60,417 bases of DNA, from NCBI GenBank assembly GCA_027064085.1, contig JAMOQH010000032.1:1-60417 (forward strand). The letters are read 5' to 3'. The DNA comes from a bacterium. GTDB lineage: Bacteria > UBP6 > JAFGXH01. The position numbers were made by a program, and so were the translations under genes. The notes below the pieces were generated by a model. That model ran no database searches, was not told the origin of the DNA, and saw nothing but the letters and a program-made list of their open reading frames with translations. This document shows, piece after piece, positions 232-56,690 of the stretch (its first letter is position 1; each line of letters opens with the position of its first letter).

Positions 232-293
232 TTTTTAAACCTAGATTAAAAATTCCGTGTAAAACAAAAATTTTAATTTTTGGTTGAAACGGC
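232..293 (+). repeat. Two-hairpin intergenic element, copy A
   Basis: Hairpin 1 pairs TTTTTAA (232-238) with TTAAAAA (246-252) around the loop ACCTAGA. Next comes a four-base outer stem CCGT (255-258) / ACGG (289-292). Inside it are GTAAAAC, a stem AAAATT/AATTTT, and GGTTGAA. The same order (hairpin; four-base outer stem; AAAC...GGTTGAA inner hairpin) recurs at 5527, 16883, 20211, 28476 and 56636, with stem sequences that differ but still pair. The rest of the gap 169-447 holds only the rpsB promoter and leader. Confidence 0.6.
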
Positions 294-333
294 AAAAAAT
301 AATAAAAATAAAGCAATAAAATTCAGAAAAATA

Positions 334-362
334 TTGAAAAAAAGATGATAATCTGTTATAAA
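334..362 (+). promoter_or_regulatory. Sigma-70-type promoter of rpsB-tsf
   Basis: TTGAAA (334-339) and TATAAA (357-362) are separated by exactly 17 bases. The expected start near 369 gives a leader of about 78 bases before rpsB. It is the only strong promoter-like match seen in the gap. Confidence 0.65.
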
Positions 363-380
363 CACTAGATTTTTAACGCA

Positions 381-418
381 CGCCCGATAGATTAGGTGCA
401 ATTTATTGTTTTTGGGCG
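381..418 (+). promoter_or_regulatory. Leader hairpin upstream of rpsB
   Basis: CGCCC (381-385) can pair with GGGCG (414-418) in the transcribed leader, just upstream of the GGAGG ribosome site at 440-444. In many bacteria rpsB leaders are feedback sites for ribosomal protein S2. The position fits such a role, but I cannot match it to a known leader family. Confidence 0.35.
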
Positions 419-447
419 GAGGCTAACTTAATTATTTTGGAGGACTT

Positions 448-1245
448 ATGTCTACAATTACACTAAGAGAAATGATCGAAGGTGGAGCACATTACGGTCA
501 CAGAACAAACAAATGGAACCCTAAGATGAAACAATATATCTATGGGAAAAAAGATGGTATTCATATCATTGATTTACAACAAACTTTAGGTTTATTTGAT
601 GACGCATGTGAAGCTGCTAAGAAAATAATATCTAAAGGTGGAGATATTTTATTTGTTGGAACAAAAAAACAAGCACAAAATACTCTAACTGAAGAAGCTA
701 AAAGAGCAGATATGCCTTATGTTTCATATCGTTGGTTGGGTGGAATGCTTACTAACTTTAAAACAATCAAACAAAGTATTGATAAATTAAAAAGATATGA
801 AAAAATGATTGAAACTAATGAAATTAAAAAATATTCTAAAAAAGAAATTTTAAAAATAAATAAGCAAATTCAAAAGCTAGATAGAAACTTAGGTGGTTTG
901 AAAAAAATGAATAAACTACCAAAAGCTTTATTTGTTGTTGATGTTAGAAGAGAACATTTAGCTGTTGCTGATGCTATCAACTTAGGAATACCTGTATTTG
1001 CTATTGTAGATACAAATGTTGACCCTGATTTAGTAGATTATCCTATTCCTGCAAATGATGATGCAATTAAGAGTGTAAGATTATTCTTAAGAGGTTTTGC
1101 TGATGCTTGTTTAGAGGGTAAAAGAATTTACTCTGAAAGAGTTAAAACTGAATCAAAAGATGGTGTTAAATTTGAAAAGAAAAAATCAAATTTTAGACCT
1201 AAAAATGGGAAGAAGACTTTTAAAATTCAAAGGGATGAGAAATAA
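448..1245 (+). CDS. rpsB: 30S ribosomal protein S2
   Basis: Protein S2 of the small ribosomal subunit, 265 residues. The N-terminus shows the S2 signature GAHYGHRTNKWNPKM, followed by the DLQQTL helix, FVGTKKQA, YRWLGGMLTN and, near the C-terminus, AIVDTNVDPDLVDYPIPAND. A Lys-rich tail of about 35 residues makes it slightly longer than the E. coli form. The ATG has a GGAGG site four bases upstream. It is the first gene of an rpsB-tsf operon read from the promoter at 334-362; tsf starts 26 bases after its stop. Confidence 0.97.
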   Translation: MSTITLREMIEGGAHYGHRTNKWNPKMKQYIYGKKDGIHIIDLQQTLGLFDDACEAAKKIISKGGDILFVGTKKQAQNTLTEEAKRADMPYVSYRWLGGMLTNFKTIKQSIDKLKRYEKMIETNEIKKYSKKEILKINKQIQKLDRNLGGLKKMNKLPKALFVVDVRREHLAVADAINLGIPVFAIVDTNVDPDLVDYPIPANDDAIKSVRLFLRGFADACLEGKRIYSERVKTESKDGVKFEKKKSNFRPKNGKKTFKIQRDEK

Positions 1246-1271
1246 GCCTCTTAATGATAAAAGGAGATAAA

Positions 1272-2336
1272 ATGGCAGGTAAAGTAACAGCAAGTATGGT
1301 TAAAGAATTAAGAGAAAAAACAGGTGTTGGTATGATGGATGCCAAAAAGGCACTTGTTGAAAAAGATGGAAATATGGATGCCGCAATGGCTTTTCTAAAA
1401 GAAAAGGGTTTAGCTGCTTCTGCTAAAAAAGCAGGAAGAATTGCTGCAGAGGGTTTAGTAGCAGTTGTTGCAAATGAAAATAATACAAAAGCTGCAATTG
1501 CAGAAGTTAATTGTGAAACTGATTTTGTTGGTAAAAATGAAAAATTCAAAGCCTTCGTATCTCAGGTTGCAAATTTTGTTAATGATAATAATGTTAAAGA
1601 TGTTGAAACATTAATGACTATGAAAGATGGTGATCTAACCTTTGAAGAATTACAATCAAGTTTAGTTGCTACAATTGGTGAAAAGATATCTACTCGTCGT
1701 TTTGAAACATTAAACGCTGACTATGTTCATACTTATTTACATTCAAATGGTAGAGTTGCTGCTTTAGTTGCTTTTAAAGCAGACGATGCAAGTTTAGCTA
1801 ATGATAAATTTAAAACTTTAGCAAAAAATGTGTGTATGCATATTGCTGCAATGAAACCATCTAAGTTAACTTATAAAGAATTAGATCCTAAATTTGTTGA
1901 AGAAGAAACAAAAGGTGCAATTGAAAGAGTTAAAAAAGATAACGAAGAAAGAGCAAGATTAGGAAAACATTTATTGAATATTCCAAGATTTATTTCAAAA
2001 CTACAACTTACAGATGAGATTTTGACTGAAGTAAAAGAAGAAATTAAGAAAGAATTGTTGGCAGCAGGAAAACCTGAAAAAATTCTTGATAAAATTATAC
2101 CTGGAAAAATGGAAAGATTTATTGCAGACAATACTTCTCTTGACCAAGAACACTGTCTTCTTGACCAATTCTATGCTCTTGATGATAAAAAAACTGTTGG
2201 AGCAATTCTTGACGAAAAGAAAAAAGAACTTGGCTCTGATTTTGAACTTATCAGTTTCGTAAGATATGAAGTTGGTGATGGTTTGGAAAAAAGAGAAGAA
2301 AATTTCGCAGAAGAAGTTGCTGCTCAAATGAAGTAG
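1272..2336 (+). CDS. tsf: Translation elongation factor Ts
   Basis: EF-Ts recycles EF-Tu by exchanging GDP for GTP. The N-terminal UBA-like domain (VKELREKTGVGMMDAKKAL) and the core motif CETDFVGKNEKF are clear. A second core part (YVHTYLHSNGRVAALVAF) and a C-terminal SFVRYEVGDGLEK follow. At 354 residues it is longer than the roughly 280-300 common in proteobacteria because the region between the core subdomains is enlarged (about residues 190-300). The start at 1272 is preferred over an in-frame ATG at 1254 because AAGGAG lies five bases before it and the family N-terminus begins there. pyrH, usually next, is about 5.9 kb away. Confidence 0.95.
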   Translation: MAGKVTASMVKELREKTGVGMMDAKKALVEKDGNMDAAMAFLKEKGLAASAKKAGRIAAEGLVAVVANENNTKAAIAEVNCETDFVGKNEKFKAFVSQVANFVNDNNVKDVETLMTMKDGDLTFEELQSSLVATIGEKISTRRFETLNADYVHTYLHSNGRVAALVAFKADDASLANDKFKTLAKNVCMHIAAMKPSKLTYKELDPKFVEEETKGAIERVKKDNEERARLGKHLLNIPRFISKLQLTDEILTEVKEEIKKELLAAGKPEKILDKIIPGKMERFIADNTSLDQEHCLLDQFYALDDKKTVGAILDEKKKELGSDFELISFVRYEVGDGLEKREENFAEEVAAQMK

Positions 2337-2342
2337 AAACCT

Positions 2343-2405
2343 CGAGAGGCCATAAGCGTGAAAACGACGCTTTTCACAATAATGGACTCGCAGAACCCGT
2401 TTCTG
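2343..2405 (+). ncRNA. Candidate structured RNA downstream of tsf
   Basis: CGAG (2343-2346) and CCAT (2350-2353) pair with CTCG (2387-2390) and ATGG (2382-2385). They enclose a perfect six-pair hairpin AAGCGT/ACGCTT (2354-2372) with loop GAAAACG. A second hairpin, CAGAA/TTCTG (2391-2405), follows at once, and a strong terminator ends at 2492. There is no ORF. It could be a 3' UTR-derived small RNA or a regulatory leader for the lost hsd genes. I recognise no known riboswitch core. Confidence 0.4.
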
Positions 2406-2443
2406 AGTAGGGAAACATTCAAAGCCTAAAGTCTTTTCATGTC

Positions 2444-2492
2444 AAAAAAGTAAAGCTACCGTATCAAGTACGGCATGACGCTTTCTTTTTTT
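2444..2492 (+). terminator. Intrinsic terminator after tsf
   Basis: AAAAAAG (2444-2450) pairs with CTTTTTT (from 2485), AAAGC pairs with GCTTT, and the tip CCGTA/TACGG closes the loop. A T-run follows to 2492. The tip is itself a copy of a short palindrome also found at 28417-28437. The flanking sequence resembles the terminators at 10151 and 11241. Confidence 0.75.
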
Positions 2493-2652
2493 AGATATTG
2501 CTTTTTTAAAATCAATATCTTTTAGGATTTCAAAAAAGAATAAAAAAATAAAAATTGCAAATATTAAAACTATTTATATAATGTAATCAAGGATTTTAAT
2601 TGTATTGCAGGCGAGACAATGAATAATAAAATAGAATTTTTTTAAAGAAAAG

Positions 2653-2751
2653 ATGACTAACTTAACAAATACGCTTAAAAATCAATTTGAAGAATCTGCA
2701 AGACTGGAAGTTGAAATAAAGAAAAATTTGAAAGAGTTGGGATTTGAATGA
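2653..2751 (+). pseudogene. hsdM: C-terminal remnant of type I methyltransferase subunit HsdM
   Basis: Thirty-two codons ending in QFEESARLEVEI and NLKELGFE, the typical last residues of HsdM, the DNA-adenine methyltransferase subunit of type I systems. The roughly 480 upstream residues with the SAM-binding and NPPF/Y motifs are absent: a TAG stop lies in frame at 2632-2634, and 2493-2650 shows no methyltransferase motif. Its TGA overlaps the ATG of the next gene (ATGA), preserving the old operon coupling. It may still be translated as a small peptide but cannot methylate DNA. Confidence 0.75.
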
Positions 2752-3104
2752 TGAGTGATTTAGTTATAATTGATGAAGAAACTTTAAAAGAAAAAATTTA
2801 TACAATAAGAGGCTTGCAGGTAATGCTTGATAGAGATTTAGCAAAATTGTATAAAGTTGAAACAAAGGTGTTCAATCAAGCTGTTAAAAGAAATATAAAA
2901 AGATTTCCAGATGATTTTATGTTTCAATTAAGTAAAAATGAACTTGAGAATTGGAGGTCACAATTTGTGACCTCCAATTCTGATAAAATGGGATTAAGAC
3001 GCTTACCCTTTGGAGCAAGTTTAAAAGATTTAGGTAAAAAATGGTTTGCATTTTTTAAATTTGAAAAGGGGGCTATTGAAGTGTTGGGGAGGCTTGGGGT
3101 ATGA
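2748..3104 (+). pseudogene. ORF6N-domain protein with internal deletion
   Basis: The first 85 residues match the ORF6N (KilA/ANT-type DNA-binding) domain: [25 protein letters not shown] and [11 protein letters not shown]. After LRRLPFGAS the usual FTEQGVAML segment and the long middle part are missing. The chain jumps to [14 protein letters not shown], a known C-terminal motif of these proteins. The result is a frame-preserving deletion giving 118 residues instead of roughly 200-300. ORF6N genes are common passengers inside type I restriction operons. It overlaps yhcG by four bases (ATGA). DNA binding may survive; normal function is doubtful. Confidence 0.65.
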
Positions 3105-4087
3105 GTAGTCTTATAAAAAGTGAAGAGTACAAAAACTTTATTAAAAACATAAAAAATAAAATCTATTCATCACAAATAAAGGCAGGAATATCTGTTAATA
3201 AAGAAATGTTAATGCTTTATTGGAATATTGCAGAAATGATAGTTGAAAAACAAGAAAAATCTTCATGGGGAAGTGGATTTATAAATGAAATAAGTAAGGA
3301 TTTAAAGAAAGAATTTCCAGAAATGAAAGGATTTTCTAAAAGAAATCTTCTTTATATGAAAAGGTGGTTTTTATACTGGAATGAAATTGTGCAACAAGCT
3401 GTTGCACAATTAGAAAATATAATTCCTTGGGGACATAATATCGTTATTATAGAAAAGATAAAAGATATTGAAACCGCAATATTTTATATCAATAAAACAA
3501 TAGAAAATAACTGGTCAAGAGCTGTTTTAGTTCATCAAATTGAATCAGGATTATATAATAGACATGGAAAAGCTATTAATAACTTTAAAGAAAACCTTCC
3601 TGCTATTCAATCAGACCTTGCAAAACAAGTATTAAAAGATCCTTATTGTTTTGATTTTTTGACATTAACAGAAGATTATAATGAAAGAGAACTTGAAAAT
3701 GCACTTGTTGATAATATAACTCAATTTCTTTTAGAATTAGGAGCTGGATTTTCATATTTGGGAAGACAATATAAATTAAATGTTGGCGGAGATGATTTTT
3801 ATATAGATTTACTCTTTTATCATGTTAAATTACATAGTTATGTAGTTGTGGAGTTAAAAACTGTTAAATTTATACCCGAATTTGCAGGAAAATTAAATTT
3901 CTACATATCAGCAGTAGATGGAATATTAGCAACTGAAACTGATAACCCTACAATTGGAATTTGCAAATCTAAAAATGATACAGTAGTTGAATACTCATTA
4001 AAAGATGTAAATAAAGCTATTGGTGTAAGTGAATATCAATTAACAAATTTCTTCCTGATGAGTTTAAATCATCATTACCAAGTATAG
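3101..4087 (+). CDS. YhcG-type PDDEXK nuclease (DUF1016), frameshifted tail
   Basis: 328 residues. The N-terminal DUF1016 region (residues 1-150: [31 protein letters not shown]) is followed by a PD-(D/E)XK domain with FYIDLLFYH and VVVELK as the catalytic D...ExK. The family's usual C-terminus is encoded in another frame at 4050-4119, ending in [20 protein letters not shown] one-base indel near 4041-4055 therefore replaces the last 20 or so residues with an unrelated tail. The nuclease core is intact, so residual activity is possible. Such genes usually sit between hsdM and hsdS, as here. Confidence 0.85.
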
Positions 4088-4148
4088 AAGAAATTGAAGC
4101 TGAGCTTGAGAATAAGTAATGGAGCTCTATGTAGGAACAAGGAAACTC

Positions 4149-4201
4149 CCACCAACAAGGGGGGGCAACCCTTTGTTCAGATGCAAAGCATTTGATGGTG
4201 G
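4149..4201 (+). repeat. REP-like double hairpin, left copy
   Basis: CCACCA (4149-4154) pairs with TGGTGG (4196-4201). Between them lie a 24-base near-palindrome (4154-4177) and a hairpin with arms TCAGATGC and GCATTTGA (4177-4195). The same 53-54 base design is repeated in the same orientation at 4693-4746. It lies 21 bases before the transposase start. This copy carries mismatches in both hairpins, so it is the more eroded one. Confidence 0.8.
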
Positions 4202-4222
4202 AGAGGATAAAGAGGAGAATAA

Positions 4223-4768
4223 GTGGAAAATTATCATCATATTGTATGGGTAACACATAATAGTAGAATTAGTGAAAGAATGATTATATTTAAGGTATCA
4301 AGAGGAGAAGCTCTTATATTATCAGATGCAGATGAAGTTGAAATAGCTAACTATATTTTTCAAGTTTCAGATAAAATAAATATAAAGGTTTGTTCGATTA
4401 ATATTTGTAAAGACCATATTCATATGCTGATAAATGCCAATAATAAAGATATATCCCAAATAATGAAATCAATTAAAGGAAAAACAACTCATTTATATAA
4501 AAAAAATCACAATATAGATTATAGTTATAGCTTATGGGCTCAAAAATATTTCTCTGAAAAGATAAAAAATGAATCACACTTCACAAATGTTATTGAGTAT
4601 ATAGAAAATAATAGAAATAAACACGAATTGCCTAGAAATATAGAACTAGAAAAGACGATATATCGATATAAGGATTCCCACCAAATGGACTCCCACCAAC
4701 AAGGGGTTGCAACCCCTTGTTTCAGATGCAGAGCATCTGATGGTGGAAATGATAAAGATGAGGAATAA
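4223..4768 (+). mobile_element. REP-associated tyrosine transposase (RAYT, Y1/IS200-like)
   Basis: A 181-residue HUH single-strand transposase. It shows the N-terminal YHHIVWVTH strand, the metal-binding HUH motif DHIHMLI, KSIKGKTTH, LWAQKYFSE and the helix with the catalytic Tyr (NVIEYIENNRNKH). The start is GTG at 4223 with GAGGAG nearby. The last 25 or so codons run through the right-hand REP-like hairpin, so the C-terminus (DSHQQGVATPC...) is probably read-through of repeat DNA. RAYTs bind and move REP palindromes; here one identical-type palindrome lies on each side. The insertion lies between the yhcG-type gene and hsdS. Confidence 0.88.
4693..4746 (+). repeat. REP-like double hairpin, right copy
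   Basis: CCACCA (4693-4698) pairs with TGGTGG (4741-4746). It encloses a perfect 24-base palindrome (4698-4721, centred on GC, arms AACAAGGGGTT/AACCCCTTGTT) and a perfect eight-pair hairpin TCAGATGC/GCATCTGA with loop AGA. The result is a Y-shaped fold. It overlaps the 3' end of the transposase ORF. Confidence 0.85.
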
Positions 4769-4819
4769 TGACTAAAAGAAGACATAGATTATTAGAAAAA
4801 GATAATGTTGGAGGGGATG

Positions 4820-5434
4820 ATGAATAAGAAGGGCTTGCCTGATGGGTGGAAAATTAAACCCTTGGATAAAATTGCACATTATTTAAACGGCTTAGCTCTT
4901 CAAAAATTTAGGCCAAAAAATGATAATAATTTTTTACCTGTATTAAAAATCTCCCAATTAAGAAGTGGCTTTGCGGATGGTAAAGAAAAAGCTGATATAA
5001 ATATAAAATCTGAATATATTGTTGAGAATGGTGATGTTATATTTTCATGGTCAGGTAGCCTAATTGTTGATATCTGGTGTGGTGGAAAAGTAGCTCTGAA
5101 TCAGCACTTATTCAAGGTAACTTCTATTGATTATGATAAATGGTTTTATTATTATTGGACTAAAGAACACCTAAAAGCCTTTCAACAAATAGCAAAAGAT
5201 AAAGCTGTAACAATGGGACATATAAAAAGAAGTCACTTCAGTGAAGCTTTGTGCATTATTCCTGATAAAATTATCTTAAAAAAGGCAAAAAAAATTATCT
5301 CTCCATTATTAGATAGAATAATTTCAAATAGATTAGATAATAATAATTTAAAAGAAGAAAGAGATACTCTCTTACCTAAATTAATGAGTGGTGAGATTAG
5401 AGTTGGGGTGGGTAATGATGCAAATGGAGATTAA
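4820..5434 (+). CDS. hsdS: Half-size type I restriction specificity subunit HsdS
   Basis: About 204 residues. It has one target-recognition domain beginning LPDGWKIKPLDKIA, with FLPVLKISQLRSG, GDVIFSWSGS and LNQHLFKV, followed by one conserved helical region ending KEERDTLLPKLMSGEIRV. Complete HsdS is usually about 400 residues with two such halves, so this is the C-terminal half, or a half-subunit able to dimerise. Without HsdM it has no partner methylase here. Start ATG 4820 follows GGAGGGG; an in-frame ATG at 4805 lacks a good ribosome site. Confidence 0.85.
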   Translation: MNKKGLPDGWKIKPLDKIAHYLNGLALQKFRPKNDNNFLPVLKISQLRSGFADGKEKADINIKSEYIVENGDVIFSWSGSLIVDIWCGGKVALNQHLFKVTSIDYDKWFYYYWTKEHLKAFQQIAKDKAVTMGHIKRSHFSEALCIIPDKIILKKAKKIISPLLDRIISNRLDNNNLKEERDTLLPKLMSGEIRVGVGNDANGD

Positions 5435-5463
5435 GTGCTTTAACTGAATACATAAGAATATTT

Positions 5464-5493
5464 GTAAAAACATAAAAAAATTTATGTTTTTAC
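5464..5493 (+). repeat. Perfect 13-base-pair inverted repeat after hsdS
   Basis: GTAAAAACATAAA (5464-5476) and its exact complement (5481-5493) are separated by AAAA. No T-run follows on the plus strand, so it is not a standard terminator. It is the first of four consecutive hairpins between hsdS and hsdR. Confidence 0.7.
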
Positions 5494-5497
5494 CCAA

Positions 5498-5588
5498 ATT
5501 AAAGACCTTTTGGGGCTTTAATTTCAATTTACAAGACCGTAGGGCTTGTAAATCCACGGAAAACCATTGAAAATGGGTTGAAGTGGCA
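5498..5588 (+). repeat. Two-hairpin intergenic element, copy B (with duplicated first hairpin)
   Basis: ATTAAAG/CTTTAAT (5498-5522) is an extra first-type hairpin with an ACC...GGG loop. The element proper follows: ATTTACAAG/CTTGTAAAT (5527-5553), then the outer stem CCAC (5554-5557) / GTGG (5583-5586) with GGAAAACCATT, GAA, AATGGGTT and GAA between. This is the best-preserved copy. It fills most of the 182-base gap before hsdR, whose AGGAGG site is at 5609-5614. Confidence 0.65.
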
Positions 5589-5616
5589 AGAGTTTAGGAA
5601 ATAAAAAGGAGGTTTC

Positions 5617-8226
5617 ATGACTATAACAGAAGATGAATTAGAATTATTAGCAATAGAATGGTTTAAAAATCTAGGCTATGACTATTTATTAGGATATGAT
5701 ATAGCCCCAAATGGTGAAACTCCTTTAAGAAAAAATTATGAAGATGTTTTATTGGAAAATAGATTGGAAACAGCTCTTATAAAATTAAACCCAAGTATTC
5801 CTTTTGACGCAATTACTGATGTAATTTATAGATTAAAAAGACCACAAAAAACTAGTTTAGTTCAAAATAATCAAGAATTTCATAAAATGCTTTTACAAGG
5901 TGTTAGTATTGAAGTAAAAAAAGATGATGGTGCAGATATTGAAATTGTTAAACTTATAGATTTTCATAATATAGAAAATAATGATTTTTTAGTTGTAAAC
6001 CAATATACAATTAATGGAAAAACAGAAAGAAGACCTGATATTATTGTATTTATAAATGGATTACCAATTTCTGTGATAGAATTAAAAAACCCTGTTGGAG
6101 AAAATGCTACAATAGAAGAGGCATTTAATCAAATACAAACATATAAAAATGAAATAGAGGATTTATTTGTTTATAATGAAGCTATTGTTATTAGTGATGG
6201 GATAAATGCAAGAATTGCTTCACTAACTGCTGATAGAGAATGGTATATGTATTGGCGAACTATTGAAAATGAAAATGATAAACCTAAGCTTGAATTAGAA
6301 TTAGAAACAATGATAAATGGATTTTTTAAAAAAGAATTACTTCTTGATTATTTACAGAATTTTGTTCTTTTTGAAGACAACGGAAAGGACTTAATTAAAA
6401 AAAATGCAGGATATCATCAATTTCATGGAGTTAGAGAGGCTGTTTCTTCTGTTTTAAGGGCAAAATTTAATAAAACTAGAAAAGCTGGGATTGAAAGGGA
6501 AGATAAAGATACAAGAGTTGTTTTTGGTGATTATATTTCTATTTATGATATTGAAGATGCTGTAAATGATAAGGCAACAGTGCCCATATATTATGAAAGC
6601 AGATTGGCAAAACTTGATATTGATGAAGCTTTAATGAAAGATATAGATAATGAGGTTGAAGAACTGGTTGAAGGTTCTGAATTAAGTGATCAAGAAAGTT
6701 TTAAAAGTAAATGGAGTACTCTAGAGAAACTTGTTGGGGCAAAAAATAGAGTTGAAGAGATTGCAAAAGATTTAGTTGAGCACTTTGAAAACCGTTTATC
6801 TTCTATAAGTGGTAAAGGTATGATTGTTGCTATGAGTAGAGCAATTGCAGTTGAATTATATGATGCGATTATACAATTAAAGCCCAGGTGGCATAATGAA
6901 GACCCTCAAAAAGGAGTTCTTAAAATTATAATGACAGGTAGTGCAAGCGATAATCAAGAAATGCAAAAACATATTTACAGTAAACAAGTTAAAAAAGAAA
7001 TAGAAAAAAGATTTAAAGACAATGAAGATGAATTAAAGCTTGTAATTGTAATAGATATGTGGCTAACAGGTTTTGATGCTCCATCACTTCATACAATGTA
7101 TATTGACAAACCCATGAAATCTCATAATTTAATGCAAGCTATTGCAAGAGTTAATAGAGTTTTTAAAGATAAAGAAGGTGGACTGGTTGTTGATTATATT
7201 GGAATTGGAAACGAACTTAAAAATGCTTTGAAAACTTATACAAATAGTAAAGGAAAGGGAAAAACAACAATTGATACTCAAGAAGCGTATAATCAATTAA
7301 TTGAAAGAATTGAAATTATAAGAAATATGTACCATGGTTTTGATTATAGTAATTTTAAAGAAAATTCTTTAATCCTATTGCCTTCATCTGCAAATCATAT
7401 TTTAGGATTAAAAGATGGTAAAAAAAGGTATTTTGATACAGTTTTGGCTATGTCAAAAGCATTGAGCTTATGTTCAGGTATGGATGAGATAAAAGAATTT
7501 AAAGAAGAAATTGCTTTTTTTCAAGCTGTAAAAATTGCAATTCTGAAGTCATTTGAGAATCCTAGGAAAAAAGTAAATAAGAATATAGTTATAAAACAAA
7601 TAATAGACAATGCTATTGTATCTGATGGCGTAGATGATATTTTTAAATTAATAGGTATTGAAAAACCAAATATCAGTATATTATCTGAACAATTTATTAA
7701 TGATATTTCTAATATTCCTTACAAGAATCTTGCTGTTGAATTACTTGAAAAATTATTAAAAGATACAATTAAAGCTAGAACTAAAACAAATATTGTAAAA
7801 GAAAAGAAGTTTAGTGATAGATTAAAGGCTAGCCTTAATAATTATCATGTTAAAGGCATAGAAACAGCTCAGATAATAGAAGAACTTATTGCAATGGCAA
7901 GAGAGATTGCCAAAGATTTTGAAAATGAAAAAAAACTTGGTCTTGACTTTGATGAACTTGCATTTTATGATGCTCTTTCTGAAAATGAAGAGGCACTAAG
8001 AGAAATGGGGGATAAAATATTAAAAAATATTGCTATTGAATTAACAGAAAAATTAAGAAAAAGTATTAGTGTTGATTGGCAAAAAAGAGAGAGTGTTAGA
8101 GCAAAAATGAGAAATATTATAAGAATAATATTAAAAAGATATAAGTATCCTCCGAATAAAAGCTCAGAGGCTATAAGCCTTGTAATGAAGCAAACAGAAG
8201 TATTGAGTAATGAATGGAGTAAATAA
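5617..8226 (+). pseudogene. hsdR: Type I restriction subunit HsdR lacking ATPase motifs (in-frame deletion)
   Basis: 869 residues in one open frame; complete HsdR of this type is roughly 1000-1100. The N-terminal nuclease is intact: NNDFLVVNQ, RRPDIIVF (D141) and VIELK (E155, K157). The chain reaches FHGVREAVSSVL (about 270-280) and RKAGI, then continues with EREDKDTRVVFGDYIS, which normally comes just after the GTP(IE) of motif III. The Walker A (QGSGKS), the DEAH box and everything between, about 150-170 residues, are missing. The second RecA-like domain (DMWLTGFDAP, QAIARVNR) and the helical C-terminus remain. ATP-driven DNA translocation is therefore not expected. The TAA falls 43 bases before pyrH. 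Confidence 0.85.
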
Positions 8227-8269
8227 AATAGCAGTTTTTTTAAATAAATATTTTACTATGGGAGAGAAT

Positions 8270-10100
<1,831 letters not shown>

Positions 10101-10150
10101 TTATTTATTATACTTTGGGCCTTTCAGCCAAATAAATTTGTCTTACAGGC

Positions 10151-10181
10151 AAAAAAGTAATCAGCAAGCTGTTTCTTTTTT
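10151..10181. terminator. Bidirectional terminator between tgt and the convergent lipoprotein gene
   Basis: AAAAAAG (10151-10157) pairs with CTTTTTT (10175-10181) around a CAGC/GCTG tip. The A-run on one side and T-run on the other allow use from both strands, which fits the convergent genes. The preceding GCC...TTTGTCTTACAGGC stretch (from about 10119) is shared with the terminators at 2444 and 11241. Confidence 0.75.
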
Positions 10182-16882: not shown

Positions 16883-16939
16883 TTTTTAAGATTCTAGCTT
16901 AAAAATCCACGAAATAAGCACTAGTGATTATGTAGTGGC
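16883..16939 (+). repeat. Two-hairpin intergenic element, copy C
   Basis: TTTTTAAG/CTTAAAAA (16883-16905, loop ATTCTAG) is followed by the outer stem CCAC (16907-16910) / GTGG (16935-16938). This encloses GAA, ATAA, CAC TA GTG, TTAT and GTA. The stem sequence is unrelated to other copies but the architecture is the same. It ends at the stop codon of the minus-strand lipoprotein gene. Confidence 0.55.
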
Positions 16940-20210: not shown

Positions 20211-20272
20211 ATTTTTAAGATTTTAAGCTTAAAAATCAATGTAATAAACTGTTTATAGGTTATGAAATTGCA
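20211..20272 (+). repeat. Two-hairpin intergenic element, copy D
   Basis: ATTTTTAAG/CTTAAAAAT (20211-20236, loop ATTTTAAG) precedes the outer stem CAAT (20237-20240) / ATTG (20267-20270). Between them are GTA, ATAAA/TTTAT, and GGTTATGAA. The surrounding 20092-20328 gap has no ORF of note. Confidence 0.55.
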
Positions 20273-23300: not shown

Positions 23301-23324
23301 AAGTTTAGATTTTAAGCTAAACTT
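23301..23324 (+). repeat. First hairpin of the two-hairpin element, copy G (degenerate)
   Basis: AAGTTTAG/CTAAACTT with loop ATTTTAAG, the same loop as copy D at 20220. The second hairpin cannot be drawn convincingly; the following bases form AAATAAAA...TTTTATTT overlapping the mnmE stop. It lies between two convergent genes and may help end both transcripts. Confidence 0.45.
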
Positions 23325-23345
23325 ACAAATAAAAATTCATAAGTT

Positions 23346-24710
23346 TTATTTGCCTATACAAAAATTTTGAAAAATATTTCCTAAAATATCATCAGGGGTA
23401 ACTTCTCCTAGTATTGCTCCGATTTCTTCTAGTGCAAATCTAAAATCTTGTGAAATAAATTCTAAAGGGAGTTGGCTTTCTATTGATTTTAAAGAGTTTT
23501 CTAAGTTTTTTATACTTTTATCAATATGTTGCTTATGTCTTTCATTAGTAATTAAAATTGTTTCGCTATTAAAGTTTTTGTTAATTAATTTTTCTGAAAT
23601 TAACTCTTTTAATTCTTGTGTTCTTAAGTTATGTTTTGCAGAAATTTCCAAATCTGGCTTTATCTCAGTATGTTTTGAAACATCTATTTTATTTTGTATT
23701 AAAAGATGATTTTTTCCTTTAAATTTATAATATATTTTTTCAATATCATTAGTAAAACCATGCTCGTCATATAAAAATATTATTAAATCAGCTTCTTCTA
23801 TCTTAGAAAATACCTTTTCAACGCCTATTTGCTCTATTTTATCATTACTTTCTCTAATTCCTGCAGTGTCAATAAGAGTTATAGGGATACCATTAATTAT
23901 AATGTTACCCTCTAAATAATCTCTTGTTGTGCCAGGGATATCTGTAACTAATGCTCTATCCATTTTAAGTAAAGTATTCATTAATGAAGATTTTCCTGCA
24001 TTTGGAGCTCCAACAATAGTTACCATTGCGCCTTTTGAAATTAATTTCCCCTCATAGTAAGAACTAGATAATGATTTTAATTTAGTTAATAAATTTATGA
24101 CCTTTTCTTTTATTTTATAATTAGCCATAAAGTCGTAGTCTTCTTCAGGAAAATCAATAGTTGCTTCTGTGATTGTTGCAATATTAAATAAATTTTCTTT
24201 TATTTTCTTTAAATATTTTGATAATTCACCTCTAAGTTGTCCAACTGCTTCTAAATGTGCATTTTCAGACCTTGCTTCTATGATATCTAGTATGGATTCA
24301 GCTTGAACTAGGTCAATCTTTCCAAATAAAAAAGCTCTTTCGGTAAATTCACCTCTTTCTGCTTGAATTGCTCCATTTTTAAGTATTAATTTTAATATTT
24401 TATTAGAATTAATAAATCCACCATGTATATGAAATTCAACTATATCTTCACCTGTAAAAGAATTAGGTCCTTTGAAATATACTGCCATTGCCTCATCTAG
24501 TATGATGTTTTCATCTTTTATTTTTCCAAAGTAAAAATATCTTTTTTGGGGCATAAAATCAGAATTTTTAATTCTTCCTTTATGAAAGAAAATTTTATTC
24601 ATAATTTTTAAAGAATCTGAGCCTGAAACCCTAATAATAGAAACTCCAGCACTACAATTACCCGTTGCAACAGCTACAATTGTTTTTGATAATCTATTTT
24701 TTGTGTTCAT
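23346..24710 (-). CDS. mnmE: tRNA modification GTPase MnmE
   Basis: With MnmG it forms the 5-carboxymethylaminomethyl group at U34 of some tRNAs. 454 residues: N-terminal folate-binding domain (IVAVATGNCSAGVSIIRVSG), helical domain (GEFTERAFLFGKIDLVQAESI), an inserted G domain (GAPNAGKSSLMN, DIPGTTRD, DTAGIRES, QNKID) and the C-terminal C-x-G-K (FCIGK). All key residues are present. It stands alone and diverges from the TonB receptor gene. mnmG is not nearby. Confidence 0.97.
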   Translation of the reverse strand: MNTKNRLSKTIVAVATGNCSAGVSIIRVSGSDSLKIMNKIFFHKGRIKNSDFMPQKRYFYFGKIKDENIILDEAMAVYFKGPNSFTGEDIVEFHIHGGFINSNKILKLILKNGAIQAERGEFTERAFLFGKIDLVQAESILDIIEARSENAHLEAVGQLRGELSKYLKKIKENLFNIATITEATIDFPEEDYDFMANYKIKEKVINLLTKLKSLSSSYYEGKLISKGAMVTIVGAPNAGKSSLMNTLLKMDRALVTDIPGTTRDYLEGNIIINGIPITLIDTAGIRESNDKIEQIGVEKVFSKIEEADLIIFLYDEHGFTNDIEKIYYKFKGKNHLLIQNKIDVSKHTEIKPDLEISAKHNLRTQELKELISEKLINKNFNSETILITNERHKQHIDKSIKNLENSLKSIESQLPLEFISQDFRFALEEIGAILGEVTPDDILGNIFQNFCIGK

Positions 24711-28475: not shown

Positions 28476-28531
28476 GTAGACTTTGGCTACGAATTATATG
28501 GAAAACATTTTATATAAAATGGTTGAAATAT
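28476..28531 (+). repeat. Two-hairpin intergenic element, copy E
   Basis: GTAG/CTAC (28476-28490, loop ACTTTGG) is followed by the outer stem ATAT (28496-28499) / ATAT (28528-28531). Inside are GGAAAACATTTT, a short loop, and AAAATGGTTGAA. The GGAAAAC and GGTTGAA flanks are identical to copy B while the stems differ. It lies between the nucleotidase-domain gene and convergent truB. Confidence 0.6.
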
Positions 28532-28545
28532 CTTGTAGAAAAACC

Positions 28546-47089: not shown

Positions 47090-47090
47090 T

Positions 47091-50983: not shown

Positions 50984-51039
50984 AATGTATACTAATTGAT
51001 TTTAACTGAGTTTTGCAAGATATTTTTTATAATGTACAC

Positions 51040-51064
51040 AAAAAAAGGGTGGCAAGCCACCCTT
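51040..51064 (-). terminator. Terminator of the lipoprotein/sigma-factor operon
   Basis: On the minus strand AAGGGTGGC and GCCACCCTT (51064-51045) pair perfectly over a two-base loop and run into seven T. It lies 24 bases after the lipoprotein stop. It is the strongest terminator in the window. Confidence 0.9.
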
Positions 51065-51087
51065 AAAAGACTTAATCTTTTTATTTT

Positions 51088-51951
51088 TTACTTTTTATTA
51101 CCTAATGCTTTAAGTGTAAATGTTCTTTCAAATGCACCACTGTCTAATTGAGCTTGGCTAACTTTGAAATCTTTTTCTAAATCTTGATATAAAACTTTTA
51201 CACCTGTATCAGTAAGTTGAGTTGCATAAATATTAAGGCTCATTCCAACATTAGCTTCATGAATAGTGTAAGCTTTCATCCATGCGTCAGTACAAGGTAT
51301 TGTAGTATAATCAGTAAAATCACAAACACCTTCACTATCACATGCTTCTAGTTCGTTTAATGCGATTCTAAAACTACTAATATCACCACATTCAGTTAGT
51401 GTTCCACCATAACCATCATCAATATCCCATTTAACTGTTAAAATTGCTTGTTGAACTTTTTCAAGTTTAACAACATTTGCATCATTTGCTGCACCAGGAG
51501 CTTCAACTCCACCAATTTTAGGAACGGCTACAAAATTCTTAGAAACTTCATCTGTAAATTTTACAGTAAAGTCATAATCTTTGTTAGACCATAAGTGCTC
51601 AATTGGATAGCCCATATTAGTGCTTTCTAATTCATGAACATTTAAGTCTTTACAAGCTACTGTTGTTTTTGCAACTTCATCACCATGTACAGAAACTGTT
51701 ATGTCAACATTATCTACATTTGCTTCGCTACAATGTAATGCATCATTAGTTTCAGAGTTTCTTAAGTTGAATTTTAAATTAACTATTCCTGCAGGTTCAT
51801 TTTCTCCACAATAACCAGCATAACAAGCTTCTTTTTCACCGTTACAGTCATCGTCTGTTTTACAGTTATCACCAGCTGTTTCACAACCCATTGCAAATGT
51901 CATTAACATTATTGTTAAAATTGACAGTAATAAAAATCTTACCTTTTTCAT
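51088..51951 (-). CDS. Lipoprotein of unknown function in the sigma-factor operon
   Basis: 287 residues. Lipoprotein signal with FAMGC (C23). A Cys-rich start (CKTDDDCNGEKEACYAGYC) resembles the Dickkopf-like segment of other lipoproteins here. The remainder is beta-rich with several Cys pairs (LHCSEANVDNVDITVSVHG, YDFTVKFTDE, ILTVKWDIDDGYGG, LNIYATQLTDTG). No known family. It follows the anti-sigma gene by 33 bases and is probably an envelope target of the ECF sigma factor. Confidence 0.65.
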   Translation of the reverse strand: MKKVRFLLLSILTIMLMTFAMGCETAGDNCKTDDDCNGEKEACYAGYCGENEPAGIVNLKFNLRNSETNDALHCSEANVDNVDITVSVHGDEVAKTTVACKDLNVHELESTNMGYPIEHLWSNKDYDFTVKFTDEVSKNFVAVPKIGGVEAPGAANDANVVKLEKVQQAILTVKWDIDDGYGGTLTECGDISSFRIALNELEACDSEGVCDFTDYTTIPCTDAWMKAYTIHEANVGMSLNIYATQLTDTGVKVLYQDLEKDFKVSQAQLDSGAFERTFTLKALGNKK

Positions 51952-51984
51952 AATTCCTCCATTAAAGTAAGTAAGTTATTAAAA

Positions 51985-52572
51985 TTAAATTGGACCATCA
52001 TCATCGTTATCATTATTTTCTTTAAATAACCAAATAACAGTTTTGTTTTTATCCTTTGTTTTATAAATCATAGCATTAAATTTACTGTATTCTAAGCTAT
52101 CAATAGTTACGCTATCACCTGCTTTAGCTTGAGTATTTACTGTTGTCGTATTAGGTTTATTATTTGAAATAATGATTGAAATCAATAAAATTGCAGCTAA
52201 AGATACTATTGCGGGTGCAAATCTATATATTTTACCAAAAATATTATCATTAGCTTTAGTTTCTTCTTTTTTAATTTTTTCTTTTGGAAACTCAATAATA
52301 TTATCATATAAGGTATGTTCTTCTGTTATATTCTCAGTGTTTTTAAGTTTTTCATTTAAATCTTTTATTAAATTAGGTAATTCAAAACTATGTTCTATTT
52401 GTTCATAATGAAACAAAGTATTGCTTGATAGTTCTTCTAGTTCTTCAACTAAAACTCTACAAGTTTCACATTCTTTAAGGTGATTTGCAACTTCTTGCAT
52501 ATCCTTATCATTTAGTTCACCATCAACATAAGCTGTTAATTTTTCTGTTTCTATAAAATCACATTTTTTCAT
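51985..52572 (-). CDS. Anti-sigma factor with zinc-finger (ZAS) domain
   Basis: 195 residues. The N-terminal zinc-binding anti-sigma domain carries H31-x3-C35-x2-C38 (ANHLKECETCRVLVEEL). A linker leads to one membrane helix (about 113-132: FAPAIVSLAAILLISIIIS) and a short periplasmic domain. It would hold the upstream-encoded sigma factor at the membrane. It lies nine bases after the sigma gene. The periplasmic part ends in an acidic DNDDDGPI tail. Confidence 0.88.
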   Translation of the reverse strand: MKKCDFIETEKLTAYVDGELNDKDMQEVANHLKECETCRVLVEELEELSSNTLFHYEQIEHSFELPNLIKDLNEKLKNTENITEEHTLYDNIIEFPKEKIKKEETKANDNIFGKIYRFAPAIVSLAAILLISIIISNNKPNTTTVNTQAKAGDSVTIDSLEYSKFNAMIYKTKDKNKTVIWLFKENNDNDDDGPI

Positions 52573-52581
52573 TTCAGCCTC

Positions 52582-53175
52582 CTAATTATCATACTCTTTT
52601 AGGTATTTTTTAAGGTTCATTCTTGCATGATGTAATCTGCTCATAACGGTACCTTTTGAAATATCTAAAATTTCTGCAATATCAGCATAAGACATGTCTT
52701 CAAATTCTCTAAGTTGTAGCATTAACTTATGATCATCTGAAAGTTTATTCATTGCTTTAGCCATTTTTACCGACAACTCCCTTTTTTGAACTTGTTCTAT
52801 TGGCGATGCTACTTTATGATGAACCGAATCAGTATAGATACTTTCATTTTTATATTGTTCTCCATATTCTACAGATGATAAATTCCTTTTTTTTCTGTAT
52901 ATATCAATACTGACATTTCTAGTGATTTTATACATCCAAGTGTATAGACTAGAATTTTCTTTAAAGTTTTTGATATACTTGAATACTTTTAAAAAAACAT
53001 CTTGTGTTGCATCGTATGCATCAGATTCATTTTTTAAAATTCCATAAGCAATCATATATATCCTCTTTTGATATGTTTGAACAAGCTCTTCAAAAGCTTT
53101 ATTGTCTCCAACTTTTATTTTTGCCACAAGCCCTTTCTCATTACGCCTCAAACTCAACTCCAAACTATTAGACAT
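52582..53175 (-). CDS. ECF RNA polymerase sigma factor (RpoE-like)
   Basis: 197 residues. Region 2 (FEELVQTYQKRIYMIAYGI, SDAYDATQDVFLKVFKYI, LYTWMYKITRNVSIDIYRKK) and region 4 (LPLREF-type MLQLREFEDMSYADIAEILDISKGTVMSRLHHARMNLKKYL) are complete; region 3 is absent as in group 4 sigma factors. Followed by its anti-sigma gene. Upstream, after 13 bases, lies a receiver-TPR gene, so all may share one transcript from near 54400. Confidence 0.93.
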   Translation of the reverse strand: MSNSLELSLRRNEKGLVAKIKVGDNKAFEELVQTYQKRIYMIAYGILKNESDAYDATQDVFLKVFKYIKNFKENSSLYTWMYKITRNVSIDIYRKKRNLSSVEYGEQYKNESIYTDSVHHKVASPIEQVQKRELSVKMAKAMNKLSDDHKLMLQLREFEDMSYADIAEILDISKGTVMSRLHHARMNLKKYLKEYDN

Positions 53176-53188
53176 CTATAATAAAATT

Positions 53189-54394
53189 TTATTCATTCTT
53201 TTTTAATGTAGCCTTTAATAAAATCCTAGATTTTAACTTTTGGGCTTCAGTAAAATTATTTTTTACCTTTAATGCTAAATTGATATAAAATAAAGCCTTT
53301 TCATATTTTCCCATTTCAAAATATACTGATGATAAATTAAAAAGTAGCACAGGGCTTTCTTTTTTTTCTTGTTTTGATAATTCCCAAGCTTTAGAAAAAT
53401 ATGAAAGTGCCTCTGATTTATTTCCTGATTTATTTAAATTCATACCTATTTCATTTAATTCTTTTACACTTAATGTATGTATATCTGAGTCTAGTTTTTT
53501 TAAATATTTTTTAGCTTTTTGGATATCTCCTTTTTTTATATATAGATTAGCTAAATTATTACTTAACCCCTTGTGTCTTGGGTTTATGTTTTCAACATAT
53601 TTTAAATGCTTTTCTGCTTTGTCATTATTATTATTTTCTAAATATGACTTTCCTATTTCAAAATTATGTTCGGGGTTTTTAGGAGAAAATATTAATACCT
53701 TTTCTAAGGTTTCTAGCTTTTTCTTCTTCTCATTTATAGCATCATAGCATTTTACTAATAATTTGTGTGCAGAAAAACAGGTAGGCTTGAACATTAGTAA
53801 TAATTTTAATTCTTTAATCGATTCTTTGTATTTATTTTTTTTAAATAGATACAAAGCTTTTAAATATTTTATATAAAAATCATTTATTTTATTCTCTAAG
53901 CTAGTAATATATTTTATTGCCATTTCAAGGTTATTATCATCAATTAATTTTTCAATAGAATTTAATATGTACCAATTATCATTTTTATTATATTTTTCAA
54001 TTAATTCATTAATTATTTCTTTTATCATAGGATAATTAAATGGTTTTAGAAGTATTCCATCAAAGCCAAGTTCTTCGGCATAAGATGTGTTTTTAGTATC
54101 ATTGTCTGGTGTAATTAGTATTAATGGAATATTTCTATTGTTTTTATCTTTTTTTAATGTTTTAATAATTTCTATTTCTTTATAATTATAAATATCTATT
54201 TCTAAAAATAGTAGTTCAATATCTAATTTGCTTACAGATGATTCTATTGAATTAAAATCATTTGTATATTGCGCATTTTTAATGCCAGTTTTTTTTATTA
54301 AATTAATTAAAGAATCTCTATTATACATATCCAAGCTATATATTAAGACATTGATTTTTGATAACTGATTTGAATTTACTTTTGTAATAAACAT
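53189..54394 (-). CDS. Degenerate receiver domain with TPR repeats
   Basis: 401 residues. Residues 14-125 fold as a response-regulator receiver: strand LIYSLD, LFLEIDIYN, LILITPDND (T95) and LLKPF (K117). The phosphoacceptor Asp position is Glu65 and the N-terminal acidic pair is lost, so phosphorylation is unlikely. Residues 140-395 hold about six TPR-like repeats (YKESIKELKLLLMFKPTCFSAH, AEKHLKYVENINPRH, SEALSYFSKAWEL, YEKALFYINLALKV). It may be a constitutive scaffold for the sigma-factor system encoded next. Confidence 0.75.
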   Translation of the reverse strand: MFITKVNSNQLSKINVLIYSLDMYNRDSLINLIKKTGIKNAQYTNDFNSIESSVSKLDIELLFLEIDIYNYKEIEIIKTLKKDKNNRNIPLILITPDNDTKNTSYAEELGFDGILLKPFNYPMIKEIINELIEKYNKNDNWYILNSIEKLIDDNNLEMAIKYITSLENKINDFYIKYLKALYLFKKNKYKESIKELKLLLMFKPTCFSAHKLLVKCYDAINEKKKKLETLEKVLIFSPKNPEHNFEIGKSYLENNNNDKAEKHLKYVENINPRHKGLSNNLANLYIKKGDIQKAKKYLKKLDSDIHTLSVKELNEIGMNLNKSGNKSEALSYFSKAWELSKQEKKESPVLLFNLSSVYFEMGKYEKALFYINLALKVKNNFTEAQKLKSRILLKATLKKNE

Positions 54395-54462
54395 GCTTAA
54401 CTCATATTAACTAAGTAAATATATACAATAAATTAAATAAAATTACAAGATATTGTATATAT

Positions 54463-56457
54463 TTACCTAAATATAGAGCCAAATTTATTAAATAGTTGAT
54501 AGGAATAGATTTTATTCTTTTTAAAAAATCTTAAAGTTGAATTAAGAATTTTTTCTCGATTACTTGTTTCTATTTTATTTTCTTTTTTGCTTAAGTTCAT
54601 ATATTTTAATGTGACTTTTCCAGACATATTAATTAAAAAAGAAATGGTATTTTCTTTATCGATATTTGTAATTAAGCCTATAGATGTAAGTTCATCATTA
54701 AGTTTTCCATCTCTATTTTTATCATAAGTATTATTAAAAAATATTAAATCTCCAATTTGATAGTTCTTGTTTTTATATAATTTTCCATTTTCTTTAATAA
54801 ATTGAAAAATCAATTCGGTAATAGACAGCCATTTTCCTCGTTCATTTTTTATTATTTTAGATTTTGTTATATTTACTTTAAATTTTAGAAAAACCATTTT
54901 TATAAATCCAGAAGAAGAATTCGTCCATAATTTACTAATAGGTAAACTCTTATCCTTAAATTTTAGGGCATAATCAACAACTGGTTTCCTTTGATGATTT
55001 CCAAGCACTTTATATTGTTTAAAGTCTTTTATTGTTGTTCGCTTTCCATTTTTTTTAGGAAGATCTAGTAGCTGACCATAAGAGTTAAATAATTGAGATG
55101 CCAAACTTGGTATATTATTTTTCTTGTCTTTGGAACTTAATTTTCTCAATTTTGAATTTAAAACCTTTATTATGTTTTTATTTTTGATATTTGCTTTGTT
55201 GGGGTGTTTTAAATTCATATTGCGAGTTCTGATAGTATTTCCAACTTTATATAAAAAATATACTGTTCCTTCTTCATCAGTATTGATAACCAAAGCAACA
55301 GTAGTGAGCATATCATCTAATTTATTATTTCTATTTTTATCATAGGTATTATTAAAAAAAATAAAATCACCAGCCTTAGGTGTGGTGTTTTTAAAAATCT
55401 TTCCCTTTTCTTTAACAAAAGAAAAGATTAATTCTGTTGTGTTTCTCCAAGAACCATCTGGATTTTTAGGATAAATATCAGTAAGGTCGATATCAAAATG
55501 TGAATAAACCATTTTTATAAAACCAGATAATGAATTATTCCATTCTTCTGATTTTGGTACTTTTTTATCAATAAATGATTTGGCGTATTCTTTAATTCGT
55601 TTTCTATCAGAAGATATTTTTATACTATTTTTTATTTTTTTATTATTTGAATGAGGTTTTGATAAAATTGCAATTAAGATAATTGCAATTAAAACACTCA
55701 TTGATATTGCTAAAATTTGATATCTTTTATTTTTCGTTAAATTTTCAAAAAAATCTTGTGTTTTAACTTTATTTTTAAAACTCTTTTTGATTGAAGGAGT
55801 TTTGGTGTCATTTTTATTTGTTATTTGGTTATTTTTTACTTTAGTTATTTCTTTTTTAATTACTTCAAGTTCATCTTTTAACTCTGTTGTTCTCCATAAT
55901 ACTGAATATGTTTCTATTTCATCGGATTTCCCCTTAAACTTAACTCGCCCTAGTAGTCTTGTTCTAATTTGTGGGTATTTTTTAATTCCATTTAATGTTG
56001 TTTCGGAAATAGTTGTTCTACTTGCTGCTGTATCTGATTCTATTCTTGCTGCAACATTAACTGCATCTCCAAATATGTCATTATTTTCTACTATTACTTT
56101 ACCAGTATGAATTCCAATTCTAATTTTTATTTTATCTGTTGCTGTTTGATTATAAGCATCTAATTTTTTTTGCATTTCAATAGATGCTCTTACCCCAAGA
56201 AATTCACTATCAAATTTTGCCATAATGGAGTCGCCAATAGTTTTTATTATAGTGCCATTATGAGCTTCTATTATCGGAAATAACATTTTATTATGTCTTT
56301 CTATAAATAATCTACCCTTAATATCACCATATTTTTCAAAATATTTTGTACTGTCTTTTAAATCTGTAAACATAATGGTAATAGTTTTAAGATAATTACT
56401 TTCTAACTTTTGTTGTAATTTATTAATATCTTCTAATATTTTAGATGCATCACTCAT
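54463..56457 (-). CDS. Membrane class III adenylate cyclase with two degenerate NlpC/P60-like domains
   Basis: 664 residues. Residues 20-190 are a class III nucleotidyl cyclase: FTDLKDSTKYF (D32), KTIGDSIMAKF (K72, D76) and FGDAVNVAARIE (D131, N134, R138), so metal and substrate sites look intact. One membrane helix lies at about 246-266. The outside part has two homologous copies (about 290-425 and 492-630). Each shows SGFIKMV, KAGDFIFF or QIGDLIFF, NNTYDKNR and LNDELTSIGLI. They resemble NlpC/P60-CHAP peptidases, but the Cys before SGF is L310/S515 and the His is T386/S592. They are therefore probably sensors rather than enzymes. Confidence 0.8.
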   Translation of the reverse strand: MSDASKILEDINKLQQKLESNYLKTITIMFTDLKDSTKYFEKYGDIKGRLFIERHNKMLFPIIEAHNGTIIKTIGDSIMAKFDSEFLGVRASIEMQKKLDAYNQTATDKIKIRIGIHTGKVIVENNDIFGDAVNVAARIESDTAASRTTISETTLNGIKKYPQIRTRLLGRVKFKGKSDEIETYSVLWRTTELKDELEVIKKEITKVKNNQITNKNDTKTPSIKKSFKNKVKTQDFFENLTKNKRYQILAISMSVLIAIILIAILSKPHSNNKKIKNSIKISSDRKRIKEYAKSFIDKKVPKSEEWNNSLSGFIKMVYSHFDIDLTDIYPKNPDGSWRNTTELIFSFVKEKGKIFKNTTPKAGDFIFFNNTYDKNRNNKLDDMLTTVALVINTDEEGTVYFLYKVGNTIRTRNMNLKHPNKANIKNKNIIKVLNSKLRKLSSKDKKNNIPSLASQLFNSYGQLLDLPKKNGKRTTIKDFKQYKVLGNHQRKPVVDYALKFKDKSLPISKLWTNSSSGFIKMVFLKFKVNITKSKIIKNERGKWLSITELIFQFIKENGKLYKNKNYQIGDLIFFNNTYDKNRDGKLNDELTSIGLITNIDKENTISFLINMSGKVTLKYMNLSKKENKIETSNREKILNSTLRFFKKNKIYSYQLFNKFGSIFR

Positions 56458-56635
56458 AAACCACCAATTATAACCACTATTATTATAAATTACTTTCTTT
56501 ATGATTACAAGTTTTAAACCAGTAATTCTTTATGAGTTTACCTCCTCTTTTTTAAAAATATCTAAAATTTATGATAATTTAGGATAATTTAGGATAAAAT
56601 GGTATTATTTTGATAAAAGTTTTAGCTTGTTTCAC

Positions 56636-56690
56636 AATTAATAGACTTATAAGGCTATTAATTACGAAGAAAACAACTTGTTGGTTGATG
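56636..56690 (+). repeat. Two-hairpin intergenic element, copy F
   Basis: AATTAATAG/CTATTAATT (56636-56663, loop ACTTATAAGG) is a nine-pair stem. AAGAAAAC, CAAC/GTTG and GGTTGATGA follow. The outer four-base stem is not evident in this copy. The rest of 56458-56704 is AT-rich and includes a direct repeat of TTTAGGATAA near 56578-56597. Confidence 0.45.

What the first reader, a model, noticed from the sequence alone, without database searches (positions are those of the whole stretch)
232..56690. A recurrent two-hairpin intergenic element with covarying stems
At 232-293, 5527-5588, 16883-16939, 20211-20272, 28476-28531 and 56636-56690 (plus a half copy at 23301) the gap DNA has one plan. Hairpin 1 has a loop starting A-Y-Y. 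A four-base outer stem follows. Inside it lie (G)GNAAAAC, an inner stem, and GGTTGAA or a close variant. Outer stems are CCGT/ACGG, CCAC/GTGG, CAAT/ATTG and ATAT/ATAT: the bases change but still pair, while GGAAAAC and GGTTGAA persist. All copies are on the plus strand, whatever the direction of flanking genes. This may be a small RNA family, a non-autonomous mobile palindrome, or a replication-oriented chromosomal motif.
Basis: seen in the sequence. Interest (0 to 1): 0.75.

Follow-up and report, generated by a model that had tools for sequence, protein, structure and literature searches.

The report
Shape-conserved mobile DNA double hairpin
This bacterial genome carries roughly 80 copies of a tiny (about 70-90 base) paired-hairpin DNA element that sits next to gene ends and keeps its shape while almost every stem letter changes; it behaves like a small mobile palindrome that is recognised by shape rather than by sequence.

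Summary
In detail: a lineage-specific family of two abutting hairpins. I keep 76 copies in 1.02 Mb of the own genome, against 0-1 in shuffles. A covariance model gives 67 hits genome-wide and none in 60 relatives. Hairpin 2 pairs in 98% of 677 cells with 228 double changes. Only 2 of about 664 pairs are G-U, against 4.6% in this genome's tRNAs, so the constraint looks DNA-level.

The all-plus claim is wrong (minus copy at 10117-10181), and orientation does not follow replication. Copies crowd gene 3' ends: a facing stop codon lies within 25 nt in 31 of 63, 6 expected. One pair is identical over about 86 bp with unrelated flanks, which suggests mobility. GTAG-type REPs sit in the loops, always on the element's strand.

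Best reading: a REP-like, non-autonomous single-strand-DNA mobile palindrome recognised by shape. The enzyme is not shown; an HUH (Y1/RAYT) transposase is the candidate. It lacks the REP tag, so it is not filed as a REP.

The parts
230..293 (+). copy 1: hairpin 1 (230-254) and hairpin 2 (255-293)
   Evidence: R1 255-294, E 4.5e-8; sequence
5496..5588 (+). copy 2: extra hairpin (5496-5524), hairpin 1 (5527-5553), hairpin 2 (5554-5588)
   Evidence: R1 5554-5588, E 9.6e-11; sequence
   Evidence: R1 10117-10150, E 3.9e-6; sequence
16883..16939 (+). variant copy with two extra base pairs (GAA-AT-AA / TT-AT-GTA)
   Evidence: sequence only; not found by R1 at E<=10
20211..20272 (+). variant copy with two extra base pairs (GTA-AT-AA / TT-AT-GAA)
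   Evidence: R1 20237-20272, E 0.03; sequence
23301..23354 (+). degenerate copy: intact hairpin 1, decayed hairpin 2
   Evidence: sequence only
28476..28533 (+). copy: hairpin 1 (28476-28490) and hairpin 2 (28496-28531)
   Evidence: R1 28496-28533, E 6.2e-7
56636..56690 (+). variant copy with double tandem G-A motif (GA-A-GA / GA-T-GA)
   Evidence: pattern match 56670-56688; R1 E 7.6 only
4223..4768 (+). Y1_Tnp (IS200/RAYT-like HUH transposase), a candidate trans-acting enzyme; link to the element not shown
   Evidence: PF01797 E 5.9e-16; below the curated cut-offs of the NCBIfam IS200 and REP_Tyr_transpos models

Best explanation
The element is a non-autonomous, REP-like mobile DNA palindrome of about 70-90 bp. 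Hairpin 1 has a stem, usually 9 bp, capped by an A-G or A-A purine pair. Hairpin 2 has a 4-bp outer stem, a GNA/GNA (or tandem G-A) purine internal loop, 2 bp, an A-G mismatch and an inner stem. The constant part is the set of purine-purine mismatches, which marks one strand and one shape; stem letters are free as long as they pair. Shown here: the family, covariation without wobble, strand asymmetry, gene-end placement, duplication of the exact two-hairpin unit in two pairs, and same-strand REP insertion into the loops. Inferred: an enzyme acting on single-stranded DNA, most likely of the HUH Y1/RAYT type, recognises the folded strand by shape and moves it to places near gene 3' ends, where insertions are tolerated. 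Also inferred: stems are re-paired in one step by template switching or copying from the other arm, which would explain double changes without intermediates.
For: Copy number against shuffles and genome-wide. Covariation: 98.1% of 677 cells paired, 228 double changes against 69 in shuffles, slid versions 28-37% paired. G-U 2 of about 664 against 15 of 324 in tRNAs of the same genome, Fisher p 3e-6; no excess of G-T or A-C among outer-stem mismatches. Element strand is the better DNA folder in 70 of 71. C20 pair identical over about 86 bp with unrelated flanks; C72/C141 pair 92% identical over 73 bp covering only the two hairpins, with one compensated change. C25 versus C7 shows gain of a hairpin module and of a REP in the loop. 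Eight strict GTAN-type REP units in loops, all on the element's strand. REP-like placement at gene ends (compare PMC3733652). Y1_Tnp genes in this genome but not in the two same-family genomes, which also lack the element.
Against: No enzyme is tied to the element: one of two intact Y1 genes has a copy next to it (C182), which is no more than expected by chance, and the window Y1 gene is bracketed by a different palindrome. Only two pairs of copies show recent duplication, and no orthologous empty site for the element itself was found. The tight spacing from stop codons could mean a 3'-UTR function. A mobile element spread by copying would be expected to keep its stem sequences, so the stem diversity needs an extra process. 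Copies were collected with a structure model, which favours well-paired copies.
Confidence: 0.6

Rival explanations
1. A 3'-UTR RNA element: read in gene orientation (the reverse complement of the reader's strand), the double hairpin follows the stop codon by about 14 nt and terminates transcription or protects the mRNA end.
For: 47 of 63 copies have the 3'-side gene antisense with its stop codon facing the element, median 14 nt; 31 of 63 within 25 nt against 6 expected.
Against: In that orientation the loops are pyrimidine mismatches and the strand folds worse; no U-tract follows; no wobble pairs on that strand either; only a small share of genes has a copy; the same placement is typical of REPs (PMC3733652).
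Confidence: 0.2
2. Ordinary palindromes shaped by template-switch mutation, neither mobile nor functional; the shared core is old ancestry or decay of former REPs.
For: Template switching creates and repairs perfect stems (PMC8794818); stem changes here are paired without intermediates.
Against: Template switching would erase the purine mismatches, yet these are the conserved part; exact unit duplication; the shared core is absent from relatives.
Confidence: 0.1
3. A small structured RNA family transcribed from the reader's strand.
For: Covarying stems with conserved purine internal loops resemble RNA motifs.
Against: Near absence of G-U; no Rfam match; most copies are antisense to the 3'-side gene.
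Confidence: 0.05
4. A chromosomal motif oriented by replication.
For: Seven of eight window copies are on plus, and neighbouring copies on a contig often agree in orientation.
Against: Relative to the leading strand inferred from GC3 skew the split is 12 versus 19.
Confidence: 0.03

Closest known systems
Repetitive extragenic palindromes (GTAG- and CGTC-tagged REPs) and their RAYT / TnpA-REP transposases
   Same: Short palindromic, intergenic, many copies, within about 20 bp of gene 3' ends, sometimes providing stop codons; strand-specific hairpin with a required stem irregularity (PMC3733652; PMC8266576).
   Different: No GTAG or CGTC tag at the end; two unlike hairpins in the same orientation; stems almost free in sequence; no G-T pairing, which is often seen in REP stems.
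REPINs
   Same: Two-hairpin miniature mobile DNA (PMC3116915, found).
   Different: REPINs are two REPs in inverted orientation (my knowledge); here both hairpins carry the 5' A / 3' G mismatch on the same strand.
IS200/IS605-derived miniature elements (PATE-like)
   Same: A hairpin at each end, single-strand logic, no evident target duplication.
   Different: No parent IS with these ends was identified; no cargo; stems not conserved in sequence.
Double-hairpin and repetitive hairpin-forming elements of fungal and sponge mitochondria
   Same: Small dispersed double hairpins, intergenic, presumed mobile, restricted to close lineages (PMC2800124).
   Different: Bacterial chromosome; in the sponge elements the stems are conserved and the loops vary, the reverse of this case.
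Integron attC sites
   Same: Folded single DNA strand recognised by structure with variable stems (my knowledge).
   Different: Copies are dispersed singly in both orientations, not in a cassette array; attC boxes are not apparent.

Membership tests
REP (GTAG/CGTC superfamilies) | short palindrome, many intergenic copies, close to gene 3' ends | tested here: met
REP (GTAG/CGTC superfamilies) | unpaired GTAG or CGTC tag at one end | tested here: not met
   5' flank almost free of G, 3' flank begins with C or T then A or C
REP (GTAG/CGTC superfamilies) | cognate RAYT, usually flanked by the same repeat | tested here: inconclusive
   Y1 genes present; a copy lies upstream of the C182 gene, but the window gene is bracketed by a different palindrome
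REPIN | two REPs in inverted orientation | tested here: not met
   both hairpins carry their purine mismatches on the same strand
IS200/IS605-type miniature element | hairpin near each end and no target-site duplication | tested here: inconclusive
   two hairpins span the unit; no duplication visible in the C20 and C72/C141 pairs, but only two pairs
IS200/IS605-type miniature element | parent IS with the same ends | not tested
   no systematic search for full-length IS with these ends
Structured RNA family | match to a known family | tested here: not met
   Rfam search of the window: one tRNA only
Structured RNA family | wobble pairs tolerated in covarying stems | tested here: not met
   2 of about 664 against 15 of 324 in tRNAs
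Structured RNA family | transcribed | not testable with these tools
   no RNA-seq
Integron attC | R and L boxes, cassette array, IntI integrase | not tested
   boxes not apparent by eye; integrase not searched for
Mitochondrial double-hairpin elements | in mitochondrial DNA | tested here: not met
   copies lie between ordinary bacterial genes

The most novel reading that the evidence does not exclude
A mobile DNA propagated by shape alone: an enzyme reads only a scaffold of purine-purine mismatches, so copies in one genome share almost no stem sequence yet remain recognisable, with stems kept paired by copying between arms.
Probability: 0.3. Interest if true: 0.8.

Novelty: new variant of a known kind. 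Interest (0 to 1): 0.6.

Why it matters
Dispersed repeats normally keep their sequence. Here sequence is free and shape persists, apparently on DNA rather than RNA. If the element is mobile, it shows that a transposition system can run on structural recognition alone, and it offers about 80 natural variants to test that. It also makes a standing question testable: whether compensatory stem changes arise in one step by template switching (PMC8794818), since wobble intermediates are absent. REPs inserted in its loops, always on the same strand, would be indirect in vivo evidence that such hairpins are exposed as single-stranded DNA.

Tried and rejected
Replication orientation: 12 leading versus 19 lagging, rejected. 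Link to Rpn/YhgA-like nucleases, prompted by the C20 pair: only 3 of 20 such loci have a copy nearby, no more than the general density predicts. Same kind of element with other loop motifs in G001 and G002: a de novo internal-loop finder found nothing above shuffles, but only about 12 kb of intergenic DNA was available from each. Weak R1 matches in G001/G002 (best E 0.25-0.30) are at chance level. The four genome contigs pattern hits are chance matches that lack the stems. Viral contigs: none. Terminator reading: no U-tract. String reversal is not a valid control for the de novo finder, because hairpins survive reversal; Markov shuffles were used instead. The organism could not be named: the one collection scan that names records leaves out the own record.

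Full report
What was claimed and what is there. The sequences are as described. In the window the pattern AAAAC-N(4-28)-GGTTGA occurs 5 times against 1.0 expected. A covariance model R1, built from seven copies of the genome of which one is the window's 5527 copy, finds four copies in the window at E below 1e-5, one of them on the minus strand at 10117-10150. The 'all plus' claim is therefore wrong.

Extent of the family. The window is contig C32 of a 3.65-Mb, 195-contig genome. R1 finds 67 matches at E<=1, on both strands. In 1.02 Mb that I could read, partly chosen because it holds copies, a descriptor finds 79 places. I keep 76 after removing matches that look like coding sequence; Markov shuffles give 0-1 and the reversed motif 0. 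None of 60 relatives, including two of the same family, has a match at E<=0.001; the best in the two same-family genomes is E 0.25. A scan of about 85,000 species for one common stem version found only four chance matches; it leaves out the own record and would miss other stem versions. The family thus looks restricted to this lineage.

Anatomy. Hairpin 2 has four outer pairs, then G-N-A opposite G-N-A (or a tandem G-A/A-G form, or two tandem forms separated by one A-T pair), then two pairs that are nearly always A-T but become A-T/G-C in the window's minus copy, then A opposite G, then an inner stem of about 3-9 pairs. Hairpin 1 usually has a 9-bp stem (7 in the AAAAAAG class) whose apex is A opposite G (44 of 69) or A (19 of 69), sometimes with a further inner stem or an ATCC/TAG internal loop. 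The two usually abut with no spacer. Some loci have three hairpins or tandem hairpin-2 units. The base after the 3' end is a pyrimidine in 95% of copies, and the 5' flank almost lacks G.

DNA rather than RNA. Of 677 cells, 98.1% pair; 228 carry changes on both sides against 69 in shuffles, and slid structures pair in 28-37%. Only two pairs are G-U, against 15 of 324 in tRNA stems of the same genome (Fisher p 3e-6). Outer-stem mismatches show no excess of G-T or of A-C, so neither strand behaves like RNA. A caveat: copies were collected with structure models, which favour good pairs, though they do not forbid G-U.

Mobility and modularity. Two copies on C20 are identical over about 86 bp that begin at hairpin 1 and end just after hairpin 2, with unrelated flanks. 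They bracket a YhgA-like (PF04754) gene as direct repeats, and a neighbouring gene's last codons run into the element. A second pair (C72, C141) is 92% identical over 73 bp that cover both hairpins and little else; one of its differences is a compensated T-A to C-G change. At the paralogous gene ends on C25 and C7, C25 has a 29-nt hairpin between hairpins 1 and 2, and a GTAG-type REP in the apical loop of hairpin 2, that C7 lacks. Eight strictly detected REP units lie in loops of hairpin 1 or 2, all on the element's own strand, although the loops make up only about 1% of intergenic DNA by my estimate. REPs inside palindromes have been reported before in other genomes (PMC3733652).

Position. 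Relative to the element, the 3'-side gene is antisense, with its stop codon facing the element, in 47 of 63 copies (p 1e-4), median 14 nt away. In 31 of 63 it is within 25 nt, against 6.1 expected and at most 15 in 2000 simulations. The 5'-side gene shows no orientation bias. Genes here are open-reading-frame calls, not annotated genes. The same placement is described for REPs (PMC3733652). Orientation does not follow replication.

Mechanism. I commit to a shape-recognised, non-autonomous single-strand-DNA mobile palindrome (confidence 0.6). Shown: the shape, its strand, its pairing without wobble, its gene-end placement, duplication of the unit and insertion into the loops. Inferred: the enzyme, most likely a Y1 HUH protein. 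Two of the three in this genome keep the HUH and tyrosine motifs by eye, and Y1 genes are absent from the two same-family genomes, but that is a comparison of three genomes. E. coli TnpA-REP needs its stem bulge and acts on only one strand (PMC8266576), so recognition through a stem irregularity has precedent; recognition with nearly free stems does not, as far as I know. One-step template switching (PMC8794818) would explain paired changes without intermediates, while selection keeps the purine mismatches.

Verdict. A genuine, unusual, lineage-specific family: a new variant of the REP / single-strand palindrome kind that fails the REP tag test and the REPIN arrangement test. The most serious rival is a 3'-UTR role on the opposite strand (0.2).

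Noticed in passing
window 4146-4205 and 4687-4747; also G000:C182 near 2145 (-): A different palindrome, CCACCA - ACAAGGGGTTGCAACCCCTTGT - CAGATGC..GCATCTG - TGGTGG, shaped like a three-way junction, brackets the window's Y1 transposase gene and overlaps its 3' end; a third copy lies beside similar sequence on C182. It may be the real REP of that transposase.
   Followed up: partly
window 4223-10100: The Y1 gene sits directly upstream of an unassigned 209-aa ORF (4805-5434) and an HsdR gene (5617-8226): an IS200-like gene apparently inside a type I restriction locus.
   Followed up: no
window 1-168 (-) and 60098-60397 (-); L185-L204: Both window ends fall in genes related to YhgA-like (PF04754) nucleases; the genome has 28 matches to this family, many at contig ends, so these repeats probably broke the assembly.
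   Followed up: partly
L009:1441-2717 (G000:C20): Two identical copies of the element bracket a single YhgA-like gene as direct repeats, like a minimal composite unit.
   Followed up: partly
G000:C105:861, C25:894, C150:271, C170:7692, C30:8667, C30:17428, C106:40037, C182:43635: GTAN-tagged REP hairpins in the apical loops of the two-hairpin elements, all on the same strand as the element.
   Followed up: yes
L053:1414-2217 (G000:C84): A third Y1_Tnp relative (267 aa) appears to have lost the HUH histidines and may be domesticated.
   Followed up: no
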